Shown: one piece after another, positions 335 to 37,149 of the stretch
How positions within the stretch are numbered: the first letter of the stretch is position 1
Layout of the letters: every line of letters starts with the position of its first letter
Source: Lachnospiraceae bacterium
GTDB taxonomy: Bacteria > Bacillota > Clostridia > Lachnospirales > Lachnospiraceae
Direction: 5' to 3'
Length of the DNA: 41,076 nucleotides
Assembly (NCBI GenBank): GCA_017440575.1
Contig: JAFSGY010000048.1
Span: 1 to 41,076, forward strand
The notes under the pieces: generated by a model
The model's input: the letters and a program-made list of their open reading frames with translations, nothing else
Told to the model about the DNA's origin: nothing
Database searches by the model: none
Made by a program: the position numbers and the translations under genes

Positions 335-2329
335 CTAATCTAACGTCGTTTTTAACGAATAATCACTGTAATCTAAGGAGAAGTTCGGATTATAATATGG
401 GTCACCCTTTTCCAAAATCTCTTTCCATTTGTTTCGAAAATGATCTGCTTCCTCTTCATAGCGCTTTGCCTTTGCCTCATCCTGAATATCAATTCCTCTT
501 GACGCAGATTCAAAATGATACAACTCCGCAAATGGCGTAAAGACATTTAAGTAGCCGTTTTCTCTGAGACGCAGACAAAAATCAACATCATTCAACGCAA
601 TCTTAAAGGATTCATCCAAGCCGCCAAGCTCCTCAAACAGACTGCGACGCACCATCAGACACGCTCCGGTAACCGCGGAAACATTCTGTGCATAACACAA
701 TCTTCCCATATAGCCAAGATTATCGTGATTAATTTTATAATGTGTATGACCTGCCGTTCTATGAGCACCAAGTCCCAATACAATACCTGCATGCTGAATC
801 GTGTGGTCTCCATAATAAAGCTTAGCACCAACCGCTCCTACATCCGGACGCTGTGCATACATCAGCATAGCCTCTAGCCAATTCATCGTAATAACCTGTG
901 TATCATTATTTAATAACAGCAGATATTCTCCTGTTGCATGCTTGGCACCAAAGTTATTGATTTTGGAATAATTAAACTCACCTTGATACGTAACAACCTT
1001 GATTTTCTCCTGATTCTCAAGAGTTTTATAATATGCAAAGGTAGCATCTTCAGTGCTGTTATTCTCAATAATAATCACTTCATAATTATCATAGGTAGAA
1101 CGCTCCTTAATCGAGTCTAAACATCTCCTTAAATCATCTACATGATCCTTATTCGGAATCAGAATCGAGATTTTATCCTCCTTCTGAATCTCATACTTAA
1201 TCTCAAAAATGGTTTCAAAAGCTCTCGTACTTTTAATCTCAAAATTCTTGTAGCCATTTCTGGTTAAATGGTCTGCAACTGCCCCCTTTGCCGCTGCAAT
1301 GGCATAAGGTTTTGCACTAATATCACTGGCAACACTCGCCTTATGAGAACGCCAATAATACATAAGCTTTGGAACATGAACAATATTCTTGGCATTTGAG
1401 GTCAATCTAAGAATCATATCATGATCCTGACTTCCATCGAATCCACTGCGGAACAGTTCCGTTCCTTCCAGCAATTCTCTTGCAAACACACTAAAATGAC
1501 AGATGTAATTATTTGCCCTCAGATTATCAACCGAAAAATCCGGCTTAAAATGAAGTGTAATCATATTGTCAATACTATCGCCCTTAAAGGTAGTTTCATC
1601 ACAGTAAATATAATCTGCATTCTGCTCATTAATCACTTTAACATATTCATACAAAACAGAAGGATGCAACACATCATCATGGTCAAAAAGTCCAATATAC
1701 TCACCAGTAGCAAGCCTATAACACTGGTTAGTATTGCCTGCAATTCCTTCATTCTTCTCAAGCTTATGATATACAATCCTGCTATCGGTTGCTACATATT
1801 CTTTACATCGTACGCCAACCTCTGCATGTTCTGCATCCGAGCCATCTGCCAAACACAACTCCCAGTTCTGATAGGTTTGATTTCTTACGGAATCAATCAT
1901 CTCATTTAAAAAATTCATCGGTGTATTATATAAAGGAACCAGAATACTAATCTTTACCATGCGGTCAAATTGTGTTTCCCTTTGCTTCTGTGCTTCCTCC
2001 TGCGATGGGAAACTTGCCGTTCCATGCAGTTTCTTTGCTTCTTGCTCCATTTTCTTCTGGCGAAGCTTTCTTGCAATATTCCTTGGGCCTCCTAAGTTTC
2101 TTACACGTCTGTAATTACGAAGTCCCCAATGCATACCTGCTCGAAGGGGCTTCGACGCCTTCCAGACAGGATTATTTTTAATTCTATCCAATTGAAATTG
2201 AAGATTATCTGCCTCGTTTTTTGCATCTGCAAGTCTTCCTGCCAAGGAAGCCGCACGCGCCTTCTCCTGCTCATATGCCTCTCTAAAAAAATGTGCCTCT
2301 TCTTCAGGAGTGTTCCACTGATTCTCCAT
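335..2329 (-). CDS. Two-domain GT2 glycosyltransferase with N-terminal coiled coil
   Basis: A 664-residue cytoplasmic protein. Residues about 10-52 are charged and heptad-like (coiled coil), followed by a basic stretch to about 120. A first GT-A domain starts near 126 (ISILVPLYN) and has DHDD at 216-219 as the DXD-like metal site. A second GT-A domain starts near 385 (ISILIPNKD) with a NND triplet near 475 and a late ALNDVDFCLRL motif. This two-domain GT2 layout is common in rhamnose-containing polymer clusters, where each domain can add a different linkage. The ATG at 2329 has GGAGGT five bases upstream. It is the last gene of the operon, 31 bases after the previous one. Acceptor and sugar cannot be told from sequence. 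Confidence 0.85.
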   Translation of the reverse strand: MENQWNTPEEEAHFFREAYEQEKARAASLAGRLADAKNEADNLQFQLDRIKNNPVWKASKPLRAGMHWGLRNYRRVRNLGGPRNIARKLRQKKMEQEAKKLHGTASFPSQEEAQKQRETQFDRMVKISILVPLYNTPMNFLNEMIDSVRNQTYQNWELCLADGSDAEHAEVGVRCKEYVATDSRIVYHKLEKNEGIAGNTNQCYRLATGEYIGLFDHDDVLHPSVLYEYVKVINEQNADYIYCDETTFKGDSIDNMITLHFKPDFSVDNLRANNYICHFSVFARELLEGTELFRSGFDGSQDHDMILRLTSNAKNIVHVPKLMYYWRSHKASVASDISAKPYAIAAAKGAVADHLTRNGYKNFEIKSTRAFETIFEIKYEIQKEDKISILIPNKDHVDDLRRCLDSIKERSTYDNYEVIIIENNSTEDATFAYYKTLENQEKIKVVTYQGEFNYSKINNFGAKHATGEYLLLLNNDTQVITMNWLEAMLMYAQRPDVGAVGAKLYYGDHTIQHAGIVLGLGAHRTAGHTHYKINHDNLGYMGRLCYAQNVSAVTGACLMVRRSLFEELGGLDESFKIALNDVDFCLRLRENGYLNVFTPFAELYHFESASRGIDIQDEAKAKRYEEEADHFRNKWKEILEKGDPYYNPNFSLDYSDYSLKTTLD

Positions 2330-2360: not shown

Positions 2361-4478
2361 CTACACGTTAATAATACAATCCTTCTTCCAACATATTTTT
2401 CTTTTCATCCATAGCTGCTTTTTGGTATCAACTAATATTCCAATTTGATACTCTCCACTCACAAGCATATTTTTGTCCACTAAACACTGAATGCCTGCTA
2501 AAGCAGTATTCTTTGTACAAACTCTTACGTTTTCCGCCCTATCCTGAAACAAAGCATCCACATCATAACGTAGCTTTGGATAGATTGTAAGCTCGTATAT
2601 CTCTTGATTTTTAATATTTTTTAGCAAAAGAGTCCTCTCCAATACCGCATTATCATGCTCTCTCATCACATACCAGCCCTGTATCGCGACCGTTCCCTCC
2701 GTATCGGATACCTCAGCCAGGTCTATCTCAAACATAGACAAGTTCTCTCCAGTTAATTTCCGAATATACTTATTCTGATGCTCCTTTGGAAGCTTTCCTA
2801 CCTCCGCTAAACTCAAAAGCCTTGGCCTGCTTATCTTATCATAAGGATACAGATAATTACAGCTATATGCCACATCTTTTTTCCACTGCACCAGATGTTC
2901 ACTATAAAACGGGTCTTTCGTCTTTAATAACAGATGTTTTTTATATAACATTGTCTTTTCCTGTTCAAGCCTTGCTTTCTTTTCAGGACTATTATCATGA
3001 CCACGACTCAATGACTCATGATGAAGTAGTACCACATCATTTCTCTGAACATTATAATATCCTTTTTCATACAGCTTAAAGCATAACTCGACATCATTAT
3101 ATGCTACTGCAAGTTCTTCGTCAAAGCCCCCAACTTCCCAAAAGCATTCTCTTCTTACCATAAGACATGCTGCTGTTACAGCAAGCATATTATAGGTGAG
3201 CCGGTTATGTCCATGATAAAGGTCTCCCTTATCCTCCATACCTGCAAGCTTATGTGCAGGGCCGATTCCCATATTCGTGATCCCTACATGCTGGATACGA
3301 TATGCTTCACTTTCCTCAGCCTTTGGATAATACAGCTTAGCTCCAACAGCACCTACATGTGCCATCTGAGCCTGTTCTTTCATTCTTCTAAGCCATGAAG
3401 CATCTATGATTTCTATATCATCATTCAAAAATAACAGTAGTTCTCCTTTTGCGGCTCGTGCACCAAGATTACACATTTTTGAAAAATTGAACTCTGCCTT
3501 TTGATAAATATGTTGTATTGACAGCGGCGATTTTGGTTCCTCATCATCTGCCCACTTTAAATCATAATCCTCCTGTGCCTGTGTAATCAGTTCTCTTATG
3601 CACACAAGCTCCTGTTCTGTGCTTCCGTTATCCACGAGAATAATTTCGTAATATGGATAATCTGTGAATTCAACCAAGGTTAACAAGCATCTTTTCAGAA
3701 TATTACTATTATCTTTGCTAGGAATCACGATACTTATCAGACTACTATCATTATTTTGTTTACATAACACTATGTTTTCTTGTTTTGCATTTGCATTTGA
3801 AATTTGCATTTCATTTTCAATAAGCTTTTCTCTATTTTCTTCGGTGTAAGTTTCATTATCCTTCATTTTGACTTCATTGGTAAACAAAATCTCTGAAATA
3901 TGTCCTGCATAATTGTTTTTCTCAGTAATCCTTTTCACTATTTCATAGATACTTTGCTGTTTTTTTCCCGCCAAAAGCTCTACTAACGCCGCTCCACGAA
4001 CGGCAAATATCTTTCCAAAATAGAAAAAAGAACGTAAGGTATCCGGTGAATAATCCGGCTTAAACCACGGTTTCCCCCGATAATATGAGGTATCTTTAAA
4101 ACGATATGCAAGAGCCTGTTCTGTTTCCTGAACCTTTTCTCCATAAAATTCCTGAAGTTCTCCAAGGTAATCCTCATCAGCATAGACAATTTCCACATTC
4201 TCATGTTTTTCAAAATACTCTGCAAAAAAATATTCTGCGTCCTGCTCCAAAAAGCCTTTGGCACCATAAAACAAGACAAAATCTGTATCAGGCAACACCT
4301 CAGCAGAATCTTTTACTACCGTTTCCAGACTATCCTCACACGAGAAAAAGGGAAGCTTCAAAATATGCTTCCCTTTTATTAGTTTTCGTTCTATCTGCTG
4401 TGCACTTTTGCGTTCCTTCAACCATTGAAGGTATGGTGTCTGTTGTTCAAACAGACTTTTTTCATAACTGCTTATCAT
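2361..4478 (-). CDS. Large GT2 glycosyltransferase with C-terminal beta-rich domain
   Basis: A 705-residue protein. The N-terminal third (about 50-220) looks like a degenerate GT-A half with YADEDY near residue 103. A full GT2 domain begins near 250 (ISIVIPSKD) with LNDDIEI as the metal-binding motif and a late AYNDVELCFKL motif. The last roughly 110 residues (from QGWYV) are predicted beta-rich and resemble the end of the next gene, so the two are paralogues. Its ATG overlaps the stop of the preceding gene in an ATGA arrangement, indicating translational coupling. Probably extends the same cell-wall polymer as its neighbours. The sugar donor is unknown. Confidence 0.85.
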   Translation of the reverse strand: MISSYEKSLFEQQTPYLQWLKERKSAQQIERKLIKGKHILKLPFFSCEDSLETVVKDSAEVLPDTDFVLFYGAKGFLEQDAEYFFAEYFEKHENVEIVYADEDYLGELQEFYGEKVQETEQALAYRFKDTSYYRGKPWFKPDYSPDTLRSFFYFGKIFAVRGAALVELLAGKKQQSIYEIVKRITEKNNYAGHISEILFTNEVKMKDNETYTEENREKLIENEMQISNANAKQENIVLCKQNNDSSLISIVIPSKDNSNILKRCLLTLVEFTDYPYYEIILVDNGSTEQELVCIRELITQAQEDYDLKWADDEEPKSPLSIQHIYQKAEFNFSKMCNLGARAAKGELLLFLNDDIEIIDASWLRRMKEQAQMAHVGAVGAKLYYPKAEESEAYRIQHVGITNMGIGPAHKLAGMEDKGDLYHGHNRLTYNMLAVTAACLMVRRECFWEVGGFDEELAVAYNDVELCFKLYEKGYYNVQRNDVVLLHHESLSRGHDNSPEKKARLEQEKTMLYKKHLLLKTKDPFYSEHLVQWKKDVAYSCNYLYPYDKISRPRLLSLAEVGKLPKEHQNKYIRKLTGENLSMFEIDLAEVSDTEGTVAIQGWYVMREHDNAVLERTLLLKNIKNQEIYELTIYPKLRYDVDALFQDRAENVRVCTKNTALAGIQCLVDKNMLVSGEYQIGILVDTKKQLWMKRKICWKKDCIINV

Positions 4479-6544
4479 GCCTCAATCTCCAACTGCTTCT
4501 GGGTATTACGATAAAGTCTCTGTCTCGAACAGCCATCCTTGGCAGTCAGCCATAAATCATAAGTTCCCGGCGGAAGCGATCCTTCATAAATCCAACAACA
4601 GAAGCCTGTCATCTCTACATTGGTTTCATCCGGTAAGATAGCCGCTACATCCTTACGATAGCGCTTCATAATCGGAATCTCCCAAACCTTTCCTTCCGCA
4701 TTCTTTAAGAGAAGCTTCATCTTATATCTAGCATTGTCTACACCCGGCACATAAGCCCATCCTTTTACCAGATAATAGGATTTCTTGCGACTTCCAGCCT
4801 TTAAAAACTTCTCTTTGCCACAGTTCTCCACCACAATCATAATCGCCTGATTCATGCGTTTCTCACTTGGAAGGCTCTTGCCCTCAGACACCTGATCCTG
4901 ATAGCCTGTCATATCTGCAAACTCATAACCCTCAAGCCATCTGCACTGATATTCCGGTTCTCCACTGTTCATAAGAGTTCCATTAAACGGATCCTGTCGA
5001 TACAACTTAGCATGGCGCTTATACAAAACATCCATTTCTTCCAACAGTCTCTTAAGCTTCTTCTCATCCTGCATATCATCACCACGACTTAGCGATTCAT
5101 GATGATACAAAACAACGTCATTTCTCTGCACATTATAGAGTCCCTTTTCACAGATTCTAAAACACATATCCACATCATTATAAGCAACCTTTAATCCTTC
5201 ATAAAGACCGCCAATCTTCATATAAATGTCACGCTTCATCAACAGACACGCTGCAGTTACACCTATCATGTCATAGATTAATTTGTTGCGTCCATAGTAA
5301 TAGCTCTCCGCATCTGACATTTGCTTAAGCTTATGCCCCGGGCCATAAATGGTATTCGTAATTCCTGCATGCTGAATCAAATCAGAATTAGGGTATAGCA
5401 GCTTTGCTCCTACCGATCCTACGTGTGGAAGTGATGCCTGCCCCACCATTCTGGTAAGCCAGCTTCCCTCAATAACCTCCATATCGTCATTTAACAACAG
5501 GATATATTCACCTTTTGCGTTTTTTACACCAATATTACACATCTTAGAGAAGTTGAATTCCATTGGCTGATACAAATACGTAAAGGCACATTCCTCACGA
5601 AAAGCCTCCAGCATCATCCTTGCCTGAGCTGTACTTCCGTTATCTACTACAATAATCTCAAAATTCTTATATTCCGTAAAACGGTAAACCGAGCGAATAC
5701 ACTGCTTTAAAATATCTACATGATCCTTGGAAGGAATAATAATACTAATCAATGGATTATCCTGCACTGCATAAATCGGATACGTATATCCCGACTTTTC
5801 ATCCTTAACAAGCTTCCCCTTCAAACCACGTCTTTGCATAGCTAACTCTCGGATGAAATCATAATCTGTTCCCTCGCCGATTAGCCCTGTCCTATGCATC
5901 GCCTTATATTCAGCTTCTTCTCTTGTCTTAGCAGACAGATATGTATGGAACAGTATCTTCTCAATATGTCCGGCACGCTTTCCATTCTCTGTAACCTGCA
6001 ACACAAAATCATACAGATTCATACGCCAATCATCCATACCAAGCCATTTCAAATTAGCAAAGGCCTTTCTACGAACCGCAAACACATTTCCAAAATATAA
6101 AAATGAGAACAATGTATCCGGTGACCACATAGGCTTTACCCAAGGACACATTCTATGTGCAATCTCATTATCTGGATTCTCTTCCTCCTTCTCAGGAAGC
6201 ATCCAGATATCTTCATCACCATATACAATATCTATATCCTTATGACTATCAAAATATTGCATTACCTCTTTGAATGCATTTACACCAATTTTTCCCTCTC
6301 GCGAAACAAACAAAATGATATCTTTTTTTAGATCCTTTAAATCAAACTTCTCTCCACACATATCCATATATACAACAGAAAGAGAAGGATAAGACTCCTC
6401 CTCTCCCTCCTGCTGTAACGCATGCTCTGTTTCACGTATCCACATCAGATACGGATCGCTTTGACAGCGAAGCGAATTCTGATATTCCTCTATACAATTC
6501 TGATACAGCCTGTCCTGTATTGCTGACTTGATTTTTTTAATCAC
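4475..6544 (-). CDS. Large GT2 glycosyltransferase, paralogue of the following gene
   Basis: A 689-residue protein built like the gene after it: a degenerate N-terminal GT-A half (with VYGDEDIW), a complete GT2 domain (ISIIIPSKD, then LNDDMEV and AYNDVDMCFRI), and a beta-rich C-terminal domain containing KGWAYVPGVDNARYK. I prefer the GTG at 6544 because GGAGGGAG lies seven bases before it and this start leaves a 38-base gap after the upstream gene. An ATG at 6607 in the same frame would add 21 residues and overlap the upstream gene by 25 bases, with only a weak ribosome site. The role is polymer extension together with the neighbouring glycosyltransferases; linkage unknown. Confidence 0.82.
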   Translation of the reverse strand: MIKKIKSAIQDRLYQNCIEEYQNSLRCQSDPYLMWIRETEHALQQEGEEESYPSLSVVYMDMCGEKFDLKDLKKDIILFVSREGKIGVNAFKEVMQYFDSHKDIDIVYGDEDIWMLPEKEEENPDNEIAHRMCPWVKPMWSPDTLFSFLYFGNVFAVRRKAFANLKWLGMDDWRMNLYDFVLQVTENGKRAGHIEKILFHTYLSAKTREEAEYKAMHRTGLIGEGTDYDFIRELAMQRRGLKGKLVKDEKSGYTYPIYAVQDNPLISIIIPSKDHVDILKQCIRSVYRFTEYKNFEIIVVDNGSTAQARMMLEAFREECAFTYLYQPMEFNFSKMCNIGVKNAKGEYILLLNDDMEVIEGSWLTRMVGQASLPHVGSVGAKLLYPNSDLIQHAGITNTIYGPGHKLKQMSDAESYYYGRNKLIYDMIGVTAACLLMKRDIYMKIGGLYEGLKVAYNDVDMCFRICEKGLYNVQRNDVVLYHHESLSRGDDMQDEKKLKRLLEEMDVLYKRHAKLYRQDPFNGTLMNSGEPEYQCRWLEGYEFADMTGYQDQVSEGKSLPSEKRMNQAIMIVVENCGKEKFLKAGSRKKSYYLVKGWAYVPGVDNARYKMKLLLKNAEGKVWEIPIMKRYRKDVAAILPDETNVEMTGFCCWIYEGSLPPGTYDLWLTAKDGCSRQRLYRNTQKQLEIEA

Positions 6545-6582
6545 GCAGGCTCTCCCTCCACAACCAGTTTTATAGTGCATTT

Positions 6583-8661
6583 TTATGGAAATAGCTTCCT
6601 CCACCATGGCTCATTAGCCTTTTCCAGAGCAAGATGCAATTGTTCATCCTTTTTCTGATTATTCCGAATCATCTGACGAGCCATTTCTTCCGGCATTTCG
6701 ATAATATCCATCGTAAATACTAATTCTTTGCCACCATTGCAACTAATAATAATATTCGGATCTTCTGTTCCAAATATCACAGAATGTTCATCAATCCAGT
6801 CACCATTGGCAAATATCTCTTCTTTTACATAGCTCTTATCATCCACGCGCAATTCTTTTAATGTTACCGCACATGCATAAGAACATGGATCAATTCTAAT
6901 CTGTTTTACCCCTTCCGGAAGAATAATCTCTTTTTTCGTTTCCGTTCCCTTTGATGCCTTCTCACTTAAAATAACAGAATTCTCGCCCGTGAATCCCTCT
7001 CCAAAGTCCCAAAACAGCTGGATACTATACTTCATATCCACACGGTTAATAGAACGCATCATTTCATCCAGCTCATATGCTTCGTAGCCAATAAGCTCAC
7101 GCATGTCTCCTACTGCAGCACGCTTGCCTGTAATGAACTTCTGAAACTCTCTTTCCTCTTCTATATACTCCGCAACCTCTTCTTCCGTCAATCCTAAGAT
7201 ATCCTGATACAAAAGCTCCTCGCATACCTTTCTGGACGCACTGCCAAGCATATAATTATAAAAGGCTCGAAACGCAATCTCCCTCACCGGAACATGCTTC
7301 TCATAGGTCCACTCGTAATCAATAACCTGCCAAATATCATCCCTAATAATGATATTTCCAAAAATAAAATCGATATTACTTACATTGCACTCCTCACCAT
7401 ACGCAAGCCAGTGCATATATTCCTGAATCAAAGCCTTGAATCCCTCTACATCCGCTACTTCCAGCCTCTGATCAAGCATCTCCTCTAAGGTAATTCCCTC
7501 GCAGAATGGAAACGACAGATTCACACCTTTTCTAACGCACACATTCATTTGAACCTTCGTATCTGCATATCTTTTAGAAAGAAGCTCGTATGCCTTGGCC
7601 GTATTCAAAATATGACCCGTAGCCTCCTTCGTGGCTGGAATTTTTTCCACATGCAATTCCTTAAAGGCATTTTCAAATATGGTAGTACGTATTGCCCAAG
7701 GATTTGCTCTATCGTTAGAAAATTTGGTATAAACCTCCTTTAACTCCTTACCTACAATAAGCAGATAAGAATTGGAGAATAACGGAAATTCCTCTTCTTC
7801 GATTATTTGATCAAATACAAGCTTCTCATCAAAAAGCAACAGCCTGTCCCTATCAAAATTTCTCAGATTATTAGAAAGCTCTCCCTTTTTTGGCAAGTAA
7901 CGGTCTGAATAAACAGTTGTAGCAAATTTATAATCCGGATATGGATAATAAAAGGCATACTGATTAATATCCACACTCTTAAGAATCTTCTCTAATCCCT
8001 TTTTCGTAAAGGTTCTTGCTGCACCACCGGTAGGATATCCCTGAAGCCCCGCAAAAAAGCTTCCCACATGGTCTTCTCTACAACCAGCCCAATACTTTAA
8101 GCCAAACTTATTCTCAATAGCAATCACCATTCGTCCATTCATGCCACGATGACGATTACAGATTTTCATAAAGTCTTCATATGGAGTATTTCCTCCAATA
8201 TAAGACTGACCATATTCAAATACACCAATCAGGAATACATAATCATAATCGCAAGGAAGATTCGGCTCAATATCCTGAAAATTACCAACCATAATAGTAA
8301 TATTATCTTTATCCTGATTACGATATGCATTCACAAGGCTTCTCTTCTTGGAAAGTTCAATACAAGTAACACTTCCAGCCTTTTGTGCCAGTGTTCCTGT
8401 AATAGCACCACAGCCCGAGCCAATCTCTAGCACCTTATCCGTTTTCTTCAATGGAATCCAATCGATTATATTGGTACGAAATGGCGATAAATGATAAAAC
8501 ACCGGCCAATTCTTCTTTTCCTCAATAATCTCCGGGAACTCCTGAGGTGTATGCTCCTTTACAATTGCCAATAACTCATCCTCAACTGTTCCGTCTGAAT
8601 AAAAGTCTTCTCCCGGATAATATGTTAAATCGAGAGTAACATTTCCTACTTTTTCCGTCAT
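6583..8661 (-). CDS. Fused SAM methyltransferase and kinase-like protein (WbdD-like chain terminator candidate)
   Basis: A 692-residue protein. Residues 70-230 form a class I SAM methyltransferase with motif I LEIGSGCGAIT at 78-88 and the acidic ribose-binding residue in CIELS. From about 305 a kinase-like fold follows: YTKFSNDR (candidate ATP lysine 313), a D-x4-N catalytic-loop signature (D431, N436) and DYEW (D448) at the metal position. The region 540-660 is beta-rich, and the end is a short charged helix. A methyltransferase followed by a kinase is the layout of WbdD, which caps the growing O9a chain in E. coli and stops elongation. The gene lies 11 bases after wzt, in keeping with such a role. 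AAGGAG precedes the ATG. No HxD histidine is present at the loop, so kinase activity is uncertain. Confidence 0.72.
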   Translation of the reverse strand: MTEKVGNVTLDLTYYPGEDFYSDGTVEDELLAIVKEHTPQEFPEIIEEKKNWPVFYHLSPFRTNIIDWIPLKKTDKVLEIGSGCGAITGTLAQKAGSVTCIELSKKRSLVNAYRNQDKDNITIMVGNFQDIEPNLPCDYDYVFLIGVFEYGQSYIGGNTPYEDFMKICNRHRGMNGRMVIAIENKFGLKYWAGCREDHVGSFFAGLQGYPTGGAARTFTKKGLEKILKSVDINQYAFYYPYPDYKFATTVYSDRYLPKKGELSNNLRNFDRDRLLLFDEKLVFDQIIEEEEFPLFSNSYLLIVGKELKEVYTKFSNDRANPWAIRTTIFENAFKELHVEKIPATKEATGHILNTAKAYELLSKRYADTKVQMNVCVRKGVNLSFPFCEGITLEEMLDQRLEVADVEGFKALIQEYMHWLAYGEECNVSNIDFIFGNIIIRDDIWQVIDYEWTYEKHVPVREIAFRAFYNYMLGSASRKVCEELLYQDILGLTEEEVAEYIEEEREFQKFITGKRAAVGDMRELIGYEAYELDEMMRSINRVDMKYSIQLFWDFGEGFTGENSVILSEKASKGTETKKEIILPEGVKQIRIDPCSYACAVTLKELRVDDKSYVKEEIFANGDWIDEHSVIFGTEDPNIIISCNGGKELVFTMDIIEMPEEMARQMIRNNQKKDEQLHLALEKANEPWWRKLFP

Positions 8662-8672
8662 GGAATAACTCC

Positions 8673-9995
8673 TTATGCTTTTTTATACTGTATAATATTA
8701 TCTGCTTCCCTGACATCCTCTACGGTAATCGCAGATTCCATATCATAAAATCCAACGGTATTCTTATCAGATATTACTGTTACATCTAATGCATCGTATA
8801 ATCTGTGATAAACCTGAAAATCATTTCCATCATAACCAGTAACTCCAAAGGACAACAGATACTCGCCTCCTTGCAGGGTCATTCTCTGCTTAAAGGTAAT
8901 TTCCTTCACAGTCCCCGCCTTTACAGGCTCTAGAAACGCCTTTTCAAACATGGTATTCGTTCCTGTAATTTCCGTACCTTTTACATTCTTCACTGTAAAA
9001 GCAAAAATCGGTGCCGGAATATCATCATAAAAACGCACACGCATATGAATTCCAAAATTCATTCCCTTAATAATGGCATTCGACCTTGTACCATTATCAT
9101 CTGTAAGATAGATTTCTTCAATCTCTGCCTGCTTCGTGCCATATTCTAACGTCTTAGTATCTTCTAGTTTATTTTCCTTTTTACGGACAGCCTCCTGAAG
9201 CTCCTCATCCCCCAAAAGATTCTCATTCTCCGATTCCGATGTCTGATACTGCCCTACTAATACACGTTTAAAATCATCAATCATCTCTTTTGGGCTTCCC
9301 TCTCCAAGCTTAACACCTTGGTCTAGCAGAATAACCCTGTCACAATACTTTGCTATACTACTCAAATCATGACTTACAAAGATAATAGTCTTGCCCATTT
9401 CTTTGAATTCCTCAAACTTATGAAAACATTTGGCTTGAAAGAATACATCCCCTACGGACAATGCCTCATCAACGATCAAAATTTCCGGTTCAATATTAAT
9501 TCCTACGGAAAACGCAAGACGAACAAACATACCACTGGAATAGGTCTTACATGGCTGATTCACATAATCTCCAATATCCGCAAAATCCAAAATATCCTGA
9601 AGCTTTGCATCAATCTCTTCCTCTGAAAAACCATTCATCGTACCATTCAGATATATATTTTCTAATCCGGTATATTCCATATTAAAGCCTGCACCAAGCT
9701 CTAATAATGCAGAGATTCTACCATTTACTGACACATTACCATTTGTTTGATTTAATACACCGGTAATAATCTTCAAAATGGTAGACTTACCGGAACCATT
9801 TGTTCCTATAATACCAACACATTCACCCTTTTTTACATGAAAACTCACATTAGAAAGAGCATATTTCTCATGGTATTTTTTCTGCTTTGACAAGCCTAAC
9901 GCTTCAAACATTCTGTCACGCGGTCTGTCATACAGCTTATATATCTTATTCACGTTCTCCACCGCAATAGCGATTTCTTCACGTTCCTTACTCAT
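8673..9995 (-). CDS. wzt: ABC transporter ATPase for polysaccharide export (Wzt) with C-terminal glycan-binding domain
   Basis: A 440-residue protein. The ATPase domain has Walker A GTNGSGKST (64-72), signature YSSGM (152-156), Walker B ILIVDEAL (172-179) and switch histidine 209. A linker of about 240-285 leads to a C-terminal beta-sandwich of roughly 150 residues, the kind that in Wzt proteins of capped O-antigens reads the chain end. TagH-type ATPases without such a domain are shorter or carry unrelated tails. It pairs with the permease gene just upstream (51-base gap). The ATG at 9995 has AAAGG nine bases before it. Predicted to power export of the undecaprenyl-linked polymer across the membrane. 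Confidence 0.92.
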   Translation of the reverse strand: MSKEREEIAIAVENVNKIYKLYDRPRDRMFEALGLSKQKKYHEKYALSNVSFHVKKGECVGIIGTNGSGKSTILKIITGVLNQTNGNVSVNGRISALLELGAGFNMEYTGLENIYLNGTMNGFSEEEIDAKLQDILDFADIGDYVNQPCKTYSSGMFVRLAFSVGINIEPEILIVDEALSVGDVFFQAKCFHKFEEFKEMGKTIIFVSHDLSSIAKYCDRVILLDQGVKLGEGSPKEMIDDFKRVLVGQYQTSESENENLLGDEELQEAVRKKENKLEDTKTLEYGTKQAEIEEIYLTDDNGTRSNAIIKGMNFGIHMRVRFYDDIPAPIFAFTVKNVKGTEITGTNTMFEKAFLEPVKAGTVKEITFKQRMTLQGGEYLLSFGVTGYDGNDFQVYHRLYDALDVTVISDKNTVGFYDMESAITVEDVREADNIIQYKKA

Positions 9996-10015
9996 AATCT
10001 AAAACCTTTCGTAAT

Positions 10016-10032
10016 TATTCAGTACCTGAATA
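10016..10032. repeat. Perfect inverted repeat between wzm and wzt
   Basis: TATTCAG and CTGAATA flank a three-base TAC loop, a perfect 7-bp hairpin in the short gap between the permease and ATPase genes. No T-run follows it on the minus strand, so it is more likely an RNA processing or stability element than a terminator. Confidence 0.4.
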
Positions 10033-10046
10033 GCTACAACCTTTCA

Positions 10047-11039
10047 TCACAAAACATCCGCAAAATGTACCTTCAGCCTTCTGAATATCAAAGCTCCGAT
10101 TCCAAAGAATACTACCGTTACAATCCAGAAATACATCGTAGAATAAAAATCCTGCCAGAACCACGTCTTTTCAAACATCGCACTGCGGAAACCATTTACA
10201 ATATAATACATCGGATTAATCTTCAAAACAAACTGCATAATCGGCGGAACCGTATTCAAATCCCACAAAATCGGTGTTGCCCACATACCAATCTGCAAAC
10301 CGATATTGATAATCTGAGCCAAATCCCTGAAAAACAACACCACTGCGCAAGTCGAATAAACCAGTGCCAATACAAATAAAAATAGACAAAGGCTATAATA
10401 TGGCAGCTGTAACAGATAAAGATCCGGTGCATATCCCATACAAAAATATACAACCAGCATAAAGCATACAAAAAAGATATGCACAAAAGAAGCAGATATA
10501 ATCTTTATAATAGGTATCACACTAATCTTAAAAACAACCTTTTTTACAAGATAACTGTATTCCAGTAAAGCCATGGTTCCTCCTGTAATCGCCTCAGAGA
10601 AGAAAAACCAAGGTACAAGCCCTGCAGTCAACCATATTACATACGGAATCTCTATTGTCCCTGCCAAGGCCTCTGCTCTGGCTCCCATGACATAATCAAA
10701 TACAAACCAATACACAACAACTGTAATAACCGGCTGCACAAATGCCCACACCTTGCCAAGATAAGAACCTGCAAAACGATTCTTGAAATCATTCTTGGCA
10801 AGCTTCCAGATTAATTTTCTTGAATCCCACAGCTCTACCGGCAATGAAACCAATCTGTCATAGAAGCGATAGAATACAGCCATACCAGCCACAATAATCA
10901 CGCATGCAATAACTTTTTTTATCATTTCTTCCTGTTGGTCTGCAAGGGGATTATGATGCACCACGATAATAACTATCGCTATTAATGCTACAAGCCCCGC
11001 CAACAGCTTTATTGTTCTTTTGGATAATCCCTTTTTCAT
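10047..11039 (-). CDS. wzm: ABC transporter permease for polysaccharide export (Wzm)
   Basis: A 330-residue polytopic protein of the ABC-2 type export permease family. The core (about 85-325) begins with LIWKLAKNDFKNRFAGSYLG, the amphipathic segment typical of Wzm/TagG proteins, and continues with six hydrophobic segments. An additional N-terminal part of about 80 residues holds two predicted membrane helices (12-27 and 42-57), which lengthens it relative to the usual 260-280 residues. It forms the channel with the ATPase encoded next. The ATG at 11039 has AAAGG nine bases upstream and follows rfbC after 16 bases. Confidence 0.9.
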   Translation of the reverse strand: MKKGLSKRTIKLLAGLVALIAIVIIVVHHNPLADQQEEMIKKVIACVIIVAGMAVFYRFYDRLVSLPVELWDSRKLIWKLAKNDFKNRFAGSYLGKVWAFVQPVITVVVYWFVFDYVMGARAEALAGTIEIPYVIWLTAGLVPWFFFSEAITGGTMALLEYSYLVKKVVFKISVIPIIKIISASFVHIFFVCFMLVVYFCMGYAPDLYLLQLPYYSLCLFLFVLALVYSTCAVVLFFRDLAQIINIGLQIGMWATPILWDLNTVPPIMQFVLKINPMYYIVNGFRSAMFEKTWFWQDFYSTMYFWIVTVVFFGIGALIFRRLKVHFADVL

Positions 11040-11055
11040 TTAATGATACCTTTTT

Positions 11056-11613
11056 CTATCTTTTAAATTCTTTGATACCGCCCCATTTGGTATCCTTCTC
11101 AGAAAGTGTAAGCTCCATTCCCTCCGGAATAGGCCATTCTACACCAATATCAGGGTCATTCCAAAGAAGTCCGCCCTCATCGTTTGGATGATAGAAATCA
11201 GTACATTTATAGCAGAATTCTGCATAATCGGATAATACCAGAAAACCGTGTGCAAAATTCTTTGGGATAAAGAACTGCTTCTTGTTCTCTTCTGATAAAA
11301 GCACACCATACCACTGTCCAAAGGTCTTAGATCCTTCTCGTAAATCAACAGCAACATCGTATACCTCACCTTTAATTACGCGAACCAGCTTGTCCTGCGG
11401 AAACTCCTTCTGGAAATGTAGTCCTCTCAGTACACCTTTTTTGGAAGCTGACTGATTATCCTGCACAAATACTTCCGGAATACCCGCCTCCTTAAAGTCG
11501 TTATAATTATAGGTTTCCATGAAATATCCTCTATTATCCCCAAAAACGCTAGGAGTAATAATCTTCAATCCTTCTATTTCACATGTTTCAACTGTAATCT
11601 TTCCCATGCCCAT
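11056..11613 (-). CDS. rfbC: dTDP-4-dehydrorhamnose 3,5-epimerase
   Basis: A 185-residue cupin enzyme, the normal length for RmlC. FGDNRGYFMETYN, VQDNQSASKKGVLRGLHFQ (with the catalytic histidine in GLHFQ) and FIPKNFAHGFLVLSD are all classic RmlC segments. It double-epimerises dTDP-4-keto-6-deoxyglucose, the third step from glucose-1-phosphate to dTDP-L-rhamnose. Two in-frame ATGs lie at the start (11613 and 11607); GGAAGG is three and nine bases before them respectively, so the second may be the one used. It sits between a GH25 gene and wzm. Confidence 0.95.
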   Translation of the reverse strand: MGMGKITVETCEIEGLKIITPSVFGDNRGYFMETYNYNDFKEAGIPEVFVQDNQSASKKGVLRGLHFQKEFPQDKLVRVIKGEVYDVAVDLREGSKTFGQWYGVLLSEENKKQFFIPKNFAHGFLVLSDYAEFCYKCTDFYHPNDEGGLLWNDPDIGVEWPIPEGMELTLSEKDTKWGGIKEFKR

Positions 11614-11673: not shown

Positions 11674-12981
11674 TTAATATCCGAGATAACTGACATTTAA
11701 ATCAACATATCCCTCAATTCCTGCAACAGCTCCCTTAGAGGTATACTGCCACATATCATAACGATTCTCATACAACGGAGTATCTCTATACTCCGCAAGC
11801 CATATTGTATAATCTTCCAATTGCTCTGCGTGAACCTTATTATAATAATACCATCTTCCGGAATATACGCCCGGTGTATAGCCCTCATTTTTAATTGTCT
11901 TACAGAAATACTTACATACCAAAGTTCTGGTATCTGCATCAATCTGATCCGCTCTTGCCGTTCCACCGCCGCCTTCTGTATCGATAAAGATTGGATAATC
12001 AATTTCTTCACCGTCTAACAGCTCCAGTACCATGGAAGCCTCTTCCACCGCTTCTACTGCATTAATTGCTTGTGAAAAGAAATAAATACCAACCTTAATG
12101 CCAGCCTTTTTTGCGCCCTCAAGATTTGCTCTGAAATACGGATCCTCTACAAGAGCACCTGTCTGCATACCTCGATAGCCACAACGAATAATTGCAAATT
12201 CTACACCTTCAGCTGCTACCACATCCCAGTCAATCTCTTTTTGATATTTAGAAACATCAATACCAAGAGAAACTGCATTCTCAAGGCTCTCAACATCCAT
12301 AAGTGTTGTATGCTGTGTATCGTCTTCATCTTCTTCACTGATTTCTTTCTGCTTTACATCCTCTACAGATGCATCAATCTCTGCCTCTGAACGAATGAGA
12401 TAAGATATATCCTCAATTGCTGTATAAGATACGATTGCTTTAACTCGTGCCGTCAGAGGCTCCTTCGGAACCTCAAAGCCCTCCATCTCATACATAGATA
12501 TCTCATACTCTCCCGGCTTTAAGTCTGACACATAGATAATTCCATTTCTATCCAAGTCTTTATAGGTTCCAACATTTACAACTTCCAGTAAAAAATCCTG
12601 ACCTGCTATCGCTTTACCTGAATCATCTACTATCTTAATTCGCAAATCCTTTTCTACCGATGTTGCAAGCAGAGTAACCTTAGGAGTCTGCGTATCTTTC
12701 TCCGATACCTCCGTCTCCCCAGTCTCATCCTTTTCTACATAGCCCTTATCTCCATGGTCAAAAAAAGCTTCATCCTTCATAAAGGCCGAAAGGTTTGCAC
12801 CCTTTACCATGCCATCTGTTTCCAGCTCCACAGCTGTTTCTTCTTTTACACTCTGTACCGTTCCTGACGTTTTCTGAGTCTCCGCTAGTTTATCCTGATT
12901 CATGAATACCACTACAACACCAATCAACAGGATTACACTCATCATGCCTAAAACCGTAAGTCGTCTCATCTTAGAGTCCAT
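11674..12981 (-). CDS. Membrane-anchored GH25 lysozyme-type cell-wall hydrolase
   Basis: A 435-residue protein. One N-terminal hydrophobic helix (about 10-28) preceded by basic residues makes it a type II membrane protein. A serine/threonine/glutamate-rich stalk leads to a beta-rich module beginning [14 protein letters not shown] (about 115-200), then a second acidic linker and a C-terminal GH25 barrel with [11 protein letters not shown] and the catalytic FIDTEG pair. GH25 enzymes cleave the MurNAc-GlcNAc bond of peptidoglycan. The ATG at 12981 is chosen because GAGGT lies five bases upstream; it overlaps rfbA by 11 bases, so both are co-translated. Possible role: opening the wall for insertion of the exported polymer. 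Confidence 0.87.
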
Positions 12982-13849
12982 TTGCAACCTCTACCAAGTA
13001 TTTACCATATTCTGTCTTCATCAAAGGTTCTGCAAGTTTCAATAACTGTTCCTTATCAATAAAGCCTCTCTTATAAGCTATTTCTTCAATACATGATACA
13101 TATAAGCCCTGTCTCTTCTGAATCGCAGATACAAAGTCAGCTGCCGCAAGAAGCATATCATGATTACCTGTGTCAAGCCAAGCGAAGCCTCTTCCCAGTG
13201 TCTCAACGTTCAAGGTTCCGCGCTGTAAATATTCATTATTTACACTCGTAATCTCAATCTCACCACGTGCTGAAGGCTTTACATTCTTAGCTATCTCTAC
13301 AACATCATTATCATAGAAATATAAACCAGGTACTGCATAATTTGACTTTGGATTTGCAGGTTTTTCTTCAATGGAAAGAGCCTTACCATTCTCATCAAAC
13401 TCTACTACACCATACTCTCTCGGATCTCTTACATAATATCCAAAAATCGTTGCACCCTTCTGTGTCTCTGTTCTCTCTGCCGCACTACGAAGAACCTTAG
13501 AAAAGCTCTGACCATAGAAAATATTATCTCCAAGAACAAGCGCAACGGCATCCGTCCCGATAAATTTTTCTCCAATGATAAAAGCATCTGCCAACCCTCT
13601 TGGCTCTTCCTGAATCGCATATTCAAAGCGCATACCAAGCTGTGAACCATCACCTAATAGCTCCTTGAATACCGGTAAATCTCTTGGAGTCGAAATAACT
13701 AATACTTCTCTGATTCCTGCCAACATCAAGGTAGATAACGGATAATAAATCATCGGCTTATCATACACTGGCATAATCTGTTTTGAAATCGCTTTGGTAA
13801 GCGGATATAATCTAGTTCCTGAACCACCTGCTAATATAATTCCCTTCAT
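12971..13849 (-). CDS. rfbA: Glucose-1-phosphate thymidylyltransferase
   Basis: A 292-residue nucleotidyltransferase of typical RmlA length. The N-terminal [17 protein letters not shown] carries the glycine-rich nucleotide loop and the active-site Arg and Lys; VLGDNIFYG is the metal-binding aspartate segment; [11 protein letters not shown] is conserved near the C-terminus. It makes dTDP-glucose from dTTP and glucose-1-phosphate, the entry step of the rhamnose pathway. AAAGGAG precedes the ATG. It is separated from rfbB by an unusual 195-base repeat-rich gap and overlaps the GH25 gene that follows. Confidence 0.96.
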
Positions 13850-14044: not shown

Positions 14045-15121
14045 TTATTTATACATTTCAGCATAGTACTTCTGGTAGTCACCACTTGTTACGTGTTCCA
14101 TCCAATCCTCATGCTCGAAGTACCACTTAATCGTTCTCTTAATACCTTCTTTGAACATTGTCTCCGGCTCCCAGCCAATCTCAGCCTTAATCTTGTCCGG
14201 TGCAATCGCATATCTTCTGTCATGTCCCTTACGATCCTCAACGTAAGTAATCAAGTCCTTAGAAACTAATGCCTTTCTAGGATCTGCATCATCCAGCATC
14301 TCCTGCAAGGTTTCCAGAATAATCTCTATAATCTCAATGTTCTGCTTCTCATTATGTCCGCCAACATTATAGGTTTCAAAGAGTCTTCCCTGCTCCTGTA
14401 CCATATCAATTGCCTTAGCATGATCCTCTACATATAACCAGTCACGAACGTTCTTACCATCGCCGTATACCGGAAGCTTTTTGCCATGTAAAGCGTTATT
14501 AATAATCAATGGAATCAGTTTCTCCGGGAACTGATAAGGACCATAATTATTGGAACAGTTTGTAATATTTGCCGGGAACTTATAAGTATCCATATATGCC
14601 TTTACCAGCATATCAGAGGAAGCCTTACTTGCAGAATATGGACTATGAGGATCATATGGTGTTGTCTCATAGAAATATTCTCCCTCGTTCTCCAAGGAGC
14701 CATACACCTCATCTGTGGAAACATGAAGGAACTTCTTGCCTTCCTTAAAGCTTCCATCCGGCAATTCCCATGCTGCCTTTGCACAATTGAGCATAACAGC
14801 TGTACCAAGTACATTAGTCTGTACAAAAACCTCAGGATTACGGATACTTCTGTCAACATGACTTTCAGCCGCAAAGTGAACTACTCTGTCAATGTCATTC
14901 TCAGCAAAAATCTTTGCAATTGCCTCCTTATCCGTAATGTCTGCCTTTACAAATGTATAATTACTTCTATCCTCAATATCCTTAAGATTCTCAAGGTTGC
15001 CTGCATAGGTCAGAACATCTACATTAATGATTCTGATATCATCACCGTATTTCTTAAACATATAGTGAATATAGTTAGAACCAATAAATCCTGCGCCTCC
15101 AGTTACCAAATAAGTTTTCAT
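14045..15121 (-). CDS. rfbB: dTDP-glucose 4,6-dehydratase
   Basis: A 358-residue extended short-chain dehydrogenase. It starts MKTYLVTGGAGFIGSNYIHYM, giving the NAD-binding GxxGxxG; STDEVYGSL and SPYSASKASSD supply the active-site Thr-Asp-Glu and Tyr-x3-Lys; NNYGPYQFPEKLIPL is typical of RmlB. It converts dTDP-glucose to the 4-keto-6-deoxy sugar. The ATG at 15121 is preferred because GGAGG stands 11 bases before it; an ATG at 15139 would place that ribosome site inside the coding sequence. A promoter-like sequence directly upstream may give it independent expression. Confidence 0.96.
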   Translation of the reverse strand: MKTYLVTGGAGFIGSNYIHYMFKKYGDDIRIINVDVLTYAGNLENLKDIEDRSNYTFVKADITDKEAIAKIFAENDIDRVVHFAAESHVDRSIRNPEVFVQTNVLGTAVMLNCAKAAWELPDGSFKEGKKFLHVSTDEVYGSLENEGEYFYETTPYDPHSPYSASKASSDMLVKAYMDTYKFPANITNCSNNYGPYQFPEKLIPLIINNALHGKKLPVYGDGKNVRDWLYVEDHAKAIDMVQEQGRLFETYNVGGHNEKQNIEIIEIILETLQEMLDDADPRKALVSKDLITYVEDRKGHDRRYAIAPDKIKAEIGWEPETMFKEGIKRTIKWYFEHEDWMEHVTSGDYQKYYAEMYK

Positions 15122-15155
15122 TAGGACACTTACCTCCATTTTTTGTATTCATCTT

Positions 15156-15185: not shown

Positions 15186-18100
15186 TTAATAACCTAAATA
15201 GCTCAGATTCAAATCAACATTTCCACTAATTCCGCTAATCTTACCCTTGCAGGAGTACTGCCACATATCATATCTTCCTGCATAAGTAGGCGCTGCCGAA
15301 TACTGCGCAAGCCAAATCTTATATCCGCCCAGCGTTCCCATATTCAGCTTATCCTCATACCAAGTCTTTGATGCATAGATTCCAGGCTTGTATCCTGCAT
15401 TCTGAACCGTCTGGCAGAACGCATTAACCACTGCAGTACGTGTTGCCTTGTCAATCTTATCTGCTCTGCCTCCGCTCGCCTCTGTATCAATGAATATCGG
15501 GTAGGCCAGATTATACCCCTGTGCGAGACTGACCGCCAACGAAGCCTCTTTTACCGCTTCCACCTCATTAATCGCCTGTGAGAACACGTAAATACCAACC
15601 TTCAGCCCTGCTGCCGTAGCTCCCTTGATATTGGTATGGAAGTTTGGATCTGTAATCAGCGCTCCTGTTGAGGAACCTCTATATGCACATCGTATAATCA
15701 CATAATCCACACCGGAACTCTTAACTGCATTCCAGTCAATCTTACCATTATGCTTAGAGACATCAATACCAAAGGTCGAACCATTAACATTGGTCTGAAT
15801 CGAGCCATCTGAACCAAAATTATAGGTTACCCCTTGAATAATCTGTGTGCCGGTTACAGCATTACCATTCTTATCATAATAATATGTCTTACCATTAATT
15901 GTCTGCCAACCTGTATATACATATTTTACTTCATTCATGATAAAGAATTCACTTGCTTTGAAATAATCTGCATAAACAGCTTCTACATACTTGCCTTCAC
16001 TGTTTTTAATATATACCTGTCTGCCATCCTTGTCCTTTAGACGTGTAGAAGTATCTGCAGTCGCATCACTGTTAATCGTAACAACACAGATTGCCGTAAT
16101 CTGTTTACCTGAACTGATATCCTTTTCCTTCGTGGTTGCTGTAATCTTAACCGTTCCTGCTCCCACTCCGGTTACTTTACCCTTTTCATCTACCTTTGCA
16201 ATCTTTTCATCTGCCGAAGCCCATGTAACACCCTGATCAGACAAATAATTCGTCACAGTAGGAACCAACGTCGTATTTCCTCCTACCGCAAGCCATACCT
16301 GTTCTCTATCCAATTTCAGACTTAATGCATCAGCAGCATTTATTGTCACCGAAGTTGTTGCCTTAATATCCAGTTCTTTACCGGAAGCATCCTTAATTCC
16401 CTTAATCTGACCTGTAATCGTGGCTGTTCCCTTCTTAACACCTGTAACAACACCCTTATCATCAACTGTTGCTATCGATGTATCAGAGCTTGACCATGTC
16501 ACCGCCGGGAAGTTTTGTGTGATTGTTTCCTTACTGCCATCATTCTTGGTATAAGTAAGCTTTGTCGGACTCACGGTAAGTGTTCTCTTCACACTGCATG
16601 CATCCGCCGATTTTGTAATCTCAAGCTGTCCAGCTGTAATAGAAATATTTTCTACCGTAACAACACACTCCGCACTAAAATAATCCGTCTTCTCACTTAC
16701 TTCTGTTTTTGCCCTTGCTGACATTACGGCTGTTTCCCCGGATGCGTCTCCCGTATTATCAGAGCCTGCTTCCGAAGACGAAGTTTCCTCTGTTGTTCCC
16801 TCTTCCGACTTTGTTTCTTCCGAAGATGGTTTTTCCGGTGTTGACTCTTCCGGTGTTGAAGCATCCGGTACTGATGACTCAGGCTCCTGTGGTATTTCTT
16901 CCACTATTTTAGTAGTAATCGTCTTTCGAATTACTGTATATGTAATGGTTGCTGTACCTGCTCCCTTTGCTGTTACCGTTCCATTTGATACCGTTGCTAC
17001 ATTTTCATTCGAAGACTTCCATTCTGTTGTAAACTGATATTCATTCTGTCCTTCTGTATAATCTGAATAGGTAGTTCCTTGTAAAGTCTCACTGCTTCCG
17101 GCATAGAGCTTCATAGTATTTTTATTCAAAGATACATTCAACGTATCAAATGCCATTCTTGAATGAGCTAATGACAACTGTGACGGATCAGGAATCGTAT
17201 TCTTATCAATCTTGGTATATCCTTCCGTTCCACTCGCTACCTGTTTTGATGATTCTACCCACTGCACTGTATCAGTCAGCTTTACTTCTTCTGTTACCGC
17301 ATCAGCCTTTACCTCAGTATCTTCAACCGCTACATTAACCTGTGATTCTGTCTTAACCTCATCCTGCACATTGATAACAACATATTCTACCTTATCCTTA
17401 ACTGTTACCTGCTGTGCCGTTGTCGGGAACTTATACTTATCCGTTGAAGTAATGACTGCATCGAACTTACCTGCCTTAATACTCGTGGCATAAATGATAC
17501 CATCTTTGTCATCATCTGTAACCACCAGCTTATTACCACTCGATTTATTTGTGAGGGTAACTTCAAAAGCTGTTCCTGTAATCAACGCTCCTGTTGTGGA
17601 ATCCGTAAAACGAATCTTCAAATCTCTCTCTACAGAAGTAAAGCTAACACTAACCCGCACCTCCTGCTGCTGTGAATCTGGCTCTTCTTCCACAGATTGA
17701 ATCACTTCTTCTGCCTCAATCTCTGTATCCTGCTGTGCAACAATACCTGCATCTGCCATCGCAAGCAAGCCACTTTCGCCGACTATGCCCACACTACTCA
17801 ATTCTGTTCCCACAGGTACAATCGCCTGAATCTGCTCTTCAATCTTATTAGAAGCACTTATCATGCCAAAAGTTATAACCGCTGCTACCAGAACACCAAC
17901 ACCAGTCAACGCAACAATCGCATCAAACGCAGTGAGATTGCTAACAAACTCCTTAACACGTTCCCAGAAGGTTAATGGCACATATTCGTCCTCATAGTAT
18001 TCCTCTTCATCATATTCATAAGCCTGTGTCTGATACCCTTCATATCCTGTATCAAACCCCTCTTCATTATCATACTCTGCATAGAGATATTCTTCCTCCG

Positions 18101-18596: not shown

Positions 18597-18712
18597 CTTT
18601 CTATCATTTTTCTGCTCAAATCCACTGTTTTCGAGCTCATTCCTCCTATAACGACATCTTAACAAGTATACCAAAGTTACATAGACTACACAACAATCTT
18701 TTTCAAGAATAA

Positions 18713-36961: not shown

Positions 36962-36971
36962 GGTGAGAAAT

Positions 36972-37106: not shown

Positions 37107-37107
37107 C

Positions 37108-37131: not shown

Positions 37132-37149
37132 CTACTCTCACATCTCCTG

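What the first reader, a model, noticed from the sequence alone, without database searches (positions are those of the whole stretch)
6583..9995. WbdD-like methyltransferase-kinase next to a Wzt with glycan-binding tail in a Gram-positive cluster
The 692-residue protein has a SAM-binding motif at 78-88 and a kinase-like D431-x4-N436/D448 set, the layout of the WbdD chain terminator of E. coli O9a. It sits 11 bases after a Wzt that carries the C-terminal domain used elsewhere to read a capped chain end. This suggests cap-dependent length control of a Gram-positive wall polymer. The cap chemistry and the extra beta-rich C-terminal domain are unknown.
Basis: partly seen in the sequence, partly recalled or inferred. 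Interest (0 to 1): 0.72.

Follow-up and report, generated by a model that had tools for sequence, protein, structure and literature searches.

The report
Gram-positive sugar-chain capping enzyme and reader
A gut bacterium encodes an enzyme that appears to finish a surface sugar chain with a small phosphate-and-methyl tag, next to a transporter whose tail looks built to recognise that tag, a strategy worked out in Gram-negative bacteria but found here in many relatives of a Gram-positive gut family.

Summary
Observation confirmed. The 692-aa protein is a SAM methyltransferase, a kinase fold (296-546) that Pfam does not see, and a beta-rich C-terminal domain. Wzt, 11 bases upstream, has a true Wzt_C tail. 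WbdD structures rank first when the whole model is searched by Foldseek, yet WbdD shares no kinase sequence with it. The nearer relative is the Klebsiella O7 terminator (2024), which caps rhamnose with methylphosphate: a Pseudomonas protein of O7 layout aligns over residues 15-669 (E 6e-43).

MT-kinase-like genes occur in 75 of 150 genus representatives of the family (partial matches included). In 76 of 77 testable loci Wzt_C lies just upstream. The Wzt cap pocket has Arg where neutral-methyl readers (E. coli O8, Aquifex) have Trp; E. coli O9, whose cap is methylphosphate, shares the Asn-Ser-Gly-Arg set. Arg is in 76 of 76 linked loci and 1 of 30 unlinked Wzt_C domains.

Best reading: a methylphosphate-type cap ends the chain and licenses export. 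Unlike WbdD or O7, the terminator carries no long coiled-coil ruler; a short heptad stretch sits on a separate dual-GT2 protein. Cap chemistry, polymer and length control are inferred. New variant of a known kind.

The parts
6583..8661 (-). methyltransferase-kinase-beta-domain protein (692 aa), proposed chain terminator
7777..8661 (-). class I SAM methyltransferase domain, residues 1-295
8398..8430 (-). SAM motif LEIGSGCGAIT, residues 78-88; E79, G81, G83 in 80 of 80 relatives
7024..7776 (-). kinase-fold domain, residues 296-546
   Evidence: AlphaFold of the domain alone pLDDT 91.1, pTM 0.83; PDB matches PRPK/Bud32, APH(3')-Ia, WaaP, RIO, MPH
7309..7377 (-). catalytic loop and metal motif, residues 429-451: NIDFIFGN ... 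VIDYEW (D431, N436, D448)
6694..7023 (-). beta-rich C-terminal domain, residues 547-656, in the place of the CBM-like domain of O7 ORF6
   Evidence: DSSP strands of the model; aligned to the Pseudomonas O7-layout protein
8673..9995 (-). Wzt, ABC transporter ATPase with Wzt_C tail
8739..9149 (-). Wzt_C cap-reading domain, residues 283-419
   Evidence: Pfam 4.1e-41; same stretch
8802..8804 (-). Arg398 of Wzt, at the place of the methyl-lid Trp362 of Aquifex Wzt; with Asn347, Ser382 and Gly384 it makes the same set as E. coli O9 Wzt
10047..11039 (-). Wzm, ABC-2 permease
   Evidence: Pfam ABC2_membrane 3.9e-19
335..2329 (-). dual GT2 glycosyltransferase (GT2 domains 128-287 and 387-608), proposed polymerase; 38.7% identical to the GT2-GT2 half of the Pseudomonas O7-layout protein
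2174..2257 (-). heptad-like, coiled-coil-like stretch, residues 25-52 of that protein
   Evidence: heuristic heptad score
2361..4478 (-). GT2 glycosyltransferase
4475..6607 (-). GT2 glycosyltransferase, start overlaps the terminator gene by 25 bases
11056..11613 (-). RmlC, dTDP-sugar epimerase
12971..13849 (-). RmlA-like nucleotidyltransferase
   Evidence: 65.5% identical to E. coli HS rfbA
14045..15139 (-). RmlB-like NDP-sugar 4,6-dehydratase
   Evidence: (family), name by likeness and neighbours

Best explanation
The 692-aa protein is a bifunctional chain terminator of the Klebsiella O7 type. Its kinase domain phosphorylates the non-reducing terminal sugar (probably rhamnose) of an undecaprenol-linked polymer made in the cytoplasm by the neighbouring GT2 enzymes, and its methyltransferase then methylates that phosphate. 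The methylphosphate cap stops elongation and is bound in the Wzt_C pocket, with Arg398 meeting the anionic cap; only capped chains are exported by Wzm/Wzt, probably to be attached to the wall. Shown here: the domain folds, the conserved catalytic residues, the conserved cassette, and the link between the Arg-type Wzt_C and the kinase. Inferred: the reactions and their order, the sugar, the export gate, attachment and length control.
For: Kinase fold and methyltransferase fold; WbdD among the first Foldseek matches of the whole model. Homology over methyltransferase, kinase and beta domain to a Pseudomonas asturiensis protein of O7 layout (probability 100, E 6e-43). That protein has Tyr28, Tyr66, Gly91, Gly93, Glu112 and Tyr158 at exactly the six numbers published for O7 ORF6, and its catalytic Asp at 443 against 441 (PMC11231755). 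The window has Y21, Y56, G81, G83, E102, Y150 and D431 in the aligned places. O7 ORF6 was shown in vitro to phosphorylate and then methylate, and D441A was inactive (PMC11231755, passages). Wzt_C lies just upstream in 76 of 77 testable loci. In the family survey 73 of 74 genomes with an MT-kinase-like match also have Wzt_C, and 59 of 74 have it within 600 bases upstream. Pocket set N-S-G-R in window, E. coli O9, Citrobacter and Pseudomonas loci; N-A-A-W in E. coli O8 and N-T-A-W in Aquifex. Arg in 76 of 76 linked loci and 23 of 23 linked genus representatives examined (of 69); 2 of 31 weaker Wzt_C have it, one of them beside an MT-kinase. Three genomes with the Arg-type tail but no MT-kinase in the first survey have methyltransferase and kinase next to Wzt after all; 0 of 20 neighbourhoods of weaker Wzt_C do. 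A natural fusion joins the terminator to the dual GT2 protein (L102).
Against: No activity, polymer or cap was measured. The O7 ORF6 sequence itself was not at hand. A paralogue in the same genome (565 aa, no beta domain) sits in a glycerophosphotransferase-type cluster without Wzt, and one distant locus has methyltransferase and kinase genes without a Wzt_C found nearby (L130), so the pair need not always be a terminator. The Citrobacter homologue has lost the metal-binding Asp (FEREW). The Arg link inside the family rests largely on shared descent, so the counts are not independent events. Foldseek superposition on WbdD has rmsd of 14-17 A, and the VIA-align rows of the whole model list only methyltransferases.
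Confidence: 0.68

Rival explanations
1. The two domains make a phosphate (or methylphosphate) decoration along the chain or on a side branch, unrelated to termination; Wzt_C reads something else.
For: The 565-aa paralogue in the same genome lacks the beta domain and has no Wzt nearby; L130 has the pair beside an ABC exporter of another type.
Against: In the window type the tie to one Wzt_C subfamily is tight: 69 of 75 strong Wzt_C have an MT-kinase-like match within 6 kb against 1 of 31 weaker ones, and the pocket residue changes with it.
Confidence: 0.15
2. The methyltransferase methylates a sugar hydroxyl (as in WsaE or E. coli O8) and the kinase acts on another position or substrate; the cap read by Wzt is a plain O-methyl group.
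For: A methyl-only cap on a Gram-positive rhamnan is described for the WsaE/Wzt system of Geobacillus stearothermophilus (PMC2943079, passages).
Against: Both methyl-only readers compared (E. coli O8, Aquifex) have Trp in the pocket; this family has Arg, as the methylphosphate reader O9 has. E. coli O8 has a methyltransferase without a kinase (425 aa; PMC3482155).
Confidence: 0.1
3. The kinase is a pseudokinase or structural domain that only positions the methyltransferase.
For: The Citrobacter homologue lacks the metal-binding Asp; kinase identity among relatives falls to 32-41% while the Wzt tail keeps 58% or more.
Against: K340, D431, N436 and D448 are kept in 79 or 80 of 80 relatives, and in the three separate kinase genes aligned.
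Confidence: 0.05

Closest known systems
Klebsiella pneumoniae O7 terminator ORF6 (methyltransferase-kinase-CBM, coiled coil, two GT2)
   Same: Order of methyltransferase, Pfam-silent kinase and beta domain; catalytic residues; Wzt with Wzt_C tail; rhamnose-type sugar genes; a homologous dual GT2 unit nearby (PMC11231755, passages and first part of the Discussion)
   Different: Here the GT2-GT2 half is a separate gene and the terminator has no long coiled coil; in other relatives methyltransferase and kinase are separate genes. The paper names orthologues from alpha- and gammaproteobacteria and cyanobacteria, and its Discussion also Methanoculleus; 'Gram-positive' and 'Firmicutes' do not occur in its main text
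WbdD of E. coli O9/O9a with its Wzt
   Same: Domain order, gene order wzm-wzt-terminator-polymerase, WbdD ranks 1, 2, 3, 5 and 8 in Foldseek, Wzt homologous at 34% over 430 positions, same pocket set N-S-G-R
   Different: No sequence similarity in the kinase; the kinase alone matches PRPK/Bud32, APH and RIO types; no C-terminal coiled coil of the WbdD kind; added beta domain
WsaE and Wzm/Wzt of Geobacillus stearothermophilus S-layer glycan
   Same: Gram-positive, rhamnan, methyltransferase-based cap, Wzt predicted to bind the cap (PMC2943079, passages)
   Different: Cap is 2-O-methyl, enzyme is methyltransferase plus two GT domains with no kinase described; no sequence compared here
Aquifex aeolicus Wzm/Wzt with 3-O-methyl cap reader
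   Same: Jelly-roll tail of the same Wzt_C kind; pocket Asn kept
   Different: Pocket Trp362 for a neutral methyl group (PMC9445017, passages) against Arg398 here

Membership tests
O7 ORF6-type terminator | N-terminal methyltransferase, then unannotated kinase, then beta domain in one chain | tested here: met
O7 ORF6-type terminator | Published key residues (Y28, Y66, G91, G93, E112, Y158, D441) | tested here: met
   Through the Pseudomonas proxy, which has the first six at the same numbers and Asp at 443; aligned residues in the window. Indirect: no O7 sequence was held
O7 ORF6-type terminator | Extended coiled coil followed by two GT2 modules in the same chain | tested here: not met
   The window chain ends after the beta domain and a helix 658-682; coil and GT2-GT2 are in a separate gene. 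L102 has them fused
O7 ORF6-type terminator | Makes a methylphosphate cap on terminal rhamnose | not testable with these tools
   needs assay or NMR
WbdD | Methyltransferase plus kinase fold in one chain | tested here: met
WbdD | Sequence homology over both domains | tested here: not met
   (profile match only over residues 71-156)
WbdD | C-terminal coiled-coil ruler of about 250 residues | tested here: not met
   one helix, 658-682; no heptad stretch after residue 544; WbdD control found at 473-592
WbdD | Fold neighbours of the kinase domain alone include WbdD | tested here: inconclusive
   not among the 50 rows shown
Wzt with Wzt_C cap reader | ABC ATPase with C-terminal Wzt_C domain | tested here: met
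WsaE-type methyl-only terminator | Methyltransferase fused to GT domains, no kinase | tested here: not met
   kinase fold present, no GT in the chain; WsaE features taken from PMC2943079 passages

The most novel reading that the evidence does not exclude
Many Lachnospiraceae finish a rhamnose-type surface polymer with a methylphosphate cap, and the cap chemistry can be read from one position of the exporter: Arg in Wzt_C for anionic (phosphate-bearing) caps, Trp for neutral O-methyl caps. The Gram-positive version works without the long built-in ruler of WbdD: terminator and dual-GT2 polymerase are separate proteins (fused in a few relatives) joined through a short coil, so that chain length is set by how the terminator competes with or is recruited to the polymerase rather than by a fixed spacer.
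Probability: 0.45. Interest if true: 0.75.

Novelty: new variant of a known kind. Interest (0 to 1): 0.6.

Why it matters
If true, cap-gated export with a methylphosphate tag, worked out in Gram-negative O antigens, is also a standard way for a major group of gut Gram-positives to build surface glycans, in genes now annotated only as methyltransferases. The kinase half goes unnoticed in annotation because Pfam does not see it. The Arg/Trp difference offers a testable sequence rule for predicting cap chemistry from Wzt alone, and the missing ruler makes the question of how chain length is set directly testable. Expected beneath the surprise: a Gram-positive methyl-cap system (WsaE) was already proposed (PMC2943079), and the WbdD paper's Introduction mentions comparable systems for O-linked glycans of Gram-positives (PMC3482155).

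Tried and rejected
Filed as WbdD: rejected by sequence, kept as a fold and layout analogue. VIA-align on the whole model showed only methyltransferase rows; WbdD is not among the 50 shown, which does not exclude it. WbdD is also absent from the 50 rows shown for the kinase alone. Some rows there are titled only by complex (pre-40S, KEOPS) and I took them as RIO or Bud32 chains from the other rows, not from a call.

Its HMM hits among ORFs of the 80 loci fall on MT-kinase ORFs, 79, but 4 of 20 neighbourhoods without MT-kinase have a hit to it in other proteins, so it is not specific to terminators.

The heptad score is my own rough heuristic. It also marks globular stretches (window 517-544, WbdD 105-132, L102 1313-1340), so only the long WbdD run counts as a firm control.

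The strong/weak split of Wzt_C was set at a gap in the E-values after seeing them. The Arg difference was noticed in the window, the A3 alignment and E. coli O9 before it was counted; 25 of the 76 loci were in A3. Genera and loci share descent, so the Fisher values overstate independence. The 75 of 150 includes partial matches; one search counts 28 long matches (start before 60, end after 600) and 16 split pairs, of which two (G482, G478) are one ORF, leaving 14. Of the 74 genomes, G489, G521 and G571 have their MT-kinase on another contig than Wzt_C, and G531 has no Wzt_C. In the alignment for folding (A2, 70 rows) I left out 11 of the 80 genome contigs proteins: two cut by a contig end (L052, L059), one with a stop (L086), one with an unread letter (L058), one fusion (L102) and six near-duplicates. 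One search used all 80, cut at 760 residues.

Papers: PMC3482155 (abstract, Introduction, Results), PMC11231755 (passages and Discussion part 1 of 2), PMC9445017 and PMC2943079 (passages); all others listings only; PMC6791312, on O9a cap binding, is not held, so I could not check whether that Arg was tested. That Gram-positive MT-kinase terminators are not in print rests on listings; one search was too broad to tell anything.
Full report
What is there. The two ORFs lie on the minus strand as stated, 11 bases apart, in a run RmlB-RmlA-GH25-RmlC-Wzm-Wzt-terminator-GT2 protein-GT2 protein-dual GT2 protein. The gene order matches that of E. coli HS O9, wzm-wzt-wbdD-wbdA, and a Citrobacter braakii plasmid has rmlB-A-C-D, permease, ATPase with Wzt_C, methyltransferase protein and glycosyltransferases in the same order.

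Which family? BLASTP finds nothing between this protein and WbdD, and a profile comparison aligns only part of the methyltransferase with low probability. A protein of Pseudomonas asturiensis (1457 aa: methyltransferase, kinase, beta domain, then two GT2 domains) aligns over residues 15-669 (probability 100, E 6e-43), and the Citrobacter one over 10-516 (E 9e-41). The Pseudomonas protein has the layout published for Klebsiella O7 ORF6 (PMC11231755) and carries the six published methyltransferase residues at the same numbers, with the catalytic Asp two places on. O7 ORF6 was shown by its authors to phosphorylate and then methylate a repeat-unit mimic, and its D441A form was inactive. The window's dual GT2 protein is 38.7% identical to the GT2-GT2 half of the Pseudomonas protein, and in L102 the terminator and the dual GT2 protein are one ORF of 1364 aa. 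So the window holds the O7 machine in two pieces.

How widespread? The genus search found it in 34 of 36 genomes (own included), with two misses, and in 1 of 24 genomes of other families of the order, partially. A pattern scan of genome contigs gave 183 relatives, of which the best 80 were kept; their titles name Lachnospiraceae bacteria, Eisenbergiella, Roseburia and Acetatifactor, with a few titled only Clostridiales, Bacillota or bacterium. That the window is from Lachnospiraceae follows from these relatives, not from a label. In the family survey 75 of 150 genomes have a match and 92 of 150 have Wzt_C; without the window's own genome 73 have both and one has the MT-kinase only. In the phylum survey 12 of 398 match, in most non-family cases only in the methyltransferase. 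In 14 pairs of the family survey, and in L128, L129 and L130, methyltransferase and kinase are separate neighbouring genes; in L129 the order is Wzm-Wzt-methyltransferase-kinase-GT.

In Aquifex Wzt the neutral 3-O-methyl cap sits under Trp362, with Thr346, Ala348 and Asn313 (PMC9445017). Aligned there, E. coli O8 (methyl cap, no phosphate; PMC3482155) has N-A-A-W, Aquifex N-T-A-W, and E. coli O9 (phosphate plus methyl), the window, L128, L129, L132, Citrobacter and Pseudomonas have N-S-G-R. Counts: Arg in 76 of 76 linked loci, 23 of 23 linked genus representatives examined (of 69), 6 of 6 strong Wzt_C without a nearby MT-kinase match, and 2 of 31 weaker Wzt_C, one of them (L161) beside an MT-kinase. 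The Gly place is Ser in 9 of the 23 and 5 of the 6. Three of those six genomes proved to have methyltransferase and kinase beside Wzt and the other three have a match on another contig. By the same HMMs 0 of 20 neighbourhoods of weaker Wzt_C have either. This is the best clue that the cap is anionic. It is an inference: no structure shows the Arg touching a phosphate, and shared descent inflates the counts.

How it probably works. Sugar-nucleotide genes for dTDP-rhamnose are in the run (RmlA, B, C; RmlD candidates elsewhere in the genome). The GT2 proteins build a lipid-linked chain; kinase then methyltransferase cap its growing end; capped chains bind the Wzt tail and leave through Wzm. Two LytR-CpsA-Psr genes in the genome could attach the chain to the wall. 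Length control is the open step: WbdD has a coil of about 250 residues; the window's terminator has one helix after the beta domain (658-682), and the clearest heptad stretch is at residues 25-52 of the dual GT2 protein.

What speaks against. Nothing biochemical is shown. The paralogue in the same genome (L131) sits among glycerophosphotransferase genes without Wzt, so the enzyme pair can serve elsewhere. The Citrobacter kinase has lost its metal Asp. The beta domain also occurs beside other Wzt_C genes.

Verdict. Cap-gated export in a Gram-positive was proposed before (WsaE), so the idea is not new; the methyltransferase-kinase form in this family, its split and ruler-poor layouts and the Arg/Trp pocket difference are what I did not find in the listings searched.

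Noticed in passing
L131 (G000:C74:26000-45000), 9487-11181 +: A second methyltransferase-kinase (565 aa, no beta domain) in the window's own genome, in a cluster with two CDP-glycerol glycerophosphotransferase-type genes and no Wzt hit.
   Followed up: partly
window 11674-12987 and 15186-18749, minus strand: Two GH25 lysozyme-type genes (the larger with Ig-like and choline-binding-type repeats) lie among the Rml genes; similar genes lie in the same region of many of the 80 loci.
   Followed up: partly
L102 8014-12105 +: Natural fusion of the terminator with the dual GT2 protein, joined by a heptad-like stretch.
   Followed up: yes
L133 11923-13872 +: The Citrobacter plasmid homologue keeps the catalytic Asp and Asn but has FEREW in place of IDYEW, so its kinase may be altered or inactive.
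   Followed up: no
L073, L074, L079, L091, L094, L105: In these loci the Wzt ORF starts about 2.4-2.6 kb after the start of the Wzm ORF, more than the length of Wzm, so about 1.5 kb of something else lies between them.
   Followed up: no
window 36416-39124: An AgrB-like gene, a GHKL sensor and a LytTR response regulator: a quorum-sensing-like set beside the glycan run; a tyrosine recombinase follows at 39977-40903.
   Followed up: no
window 25462-26211 and 26349-27770, minus strand: A WecG/TagA-type glycosyltransferase and a Bac_transf-type initiating transferase, candidates for starting the lipid-linked chain.
   Followed up: no
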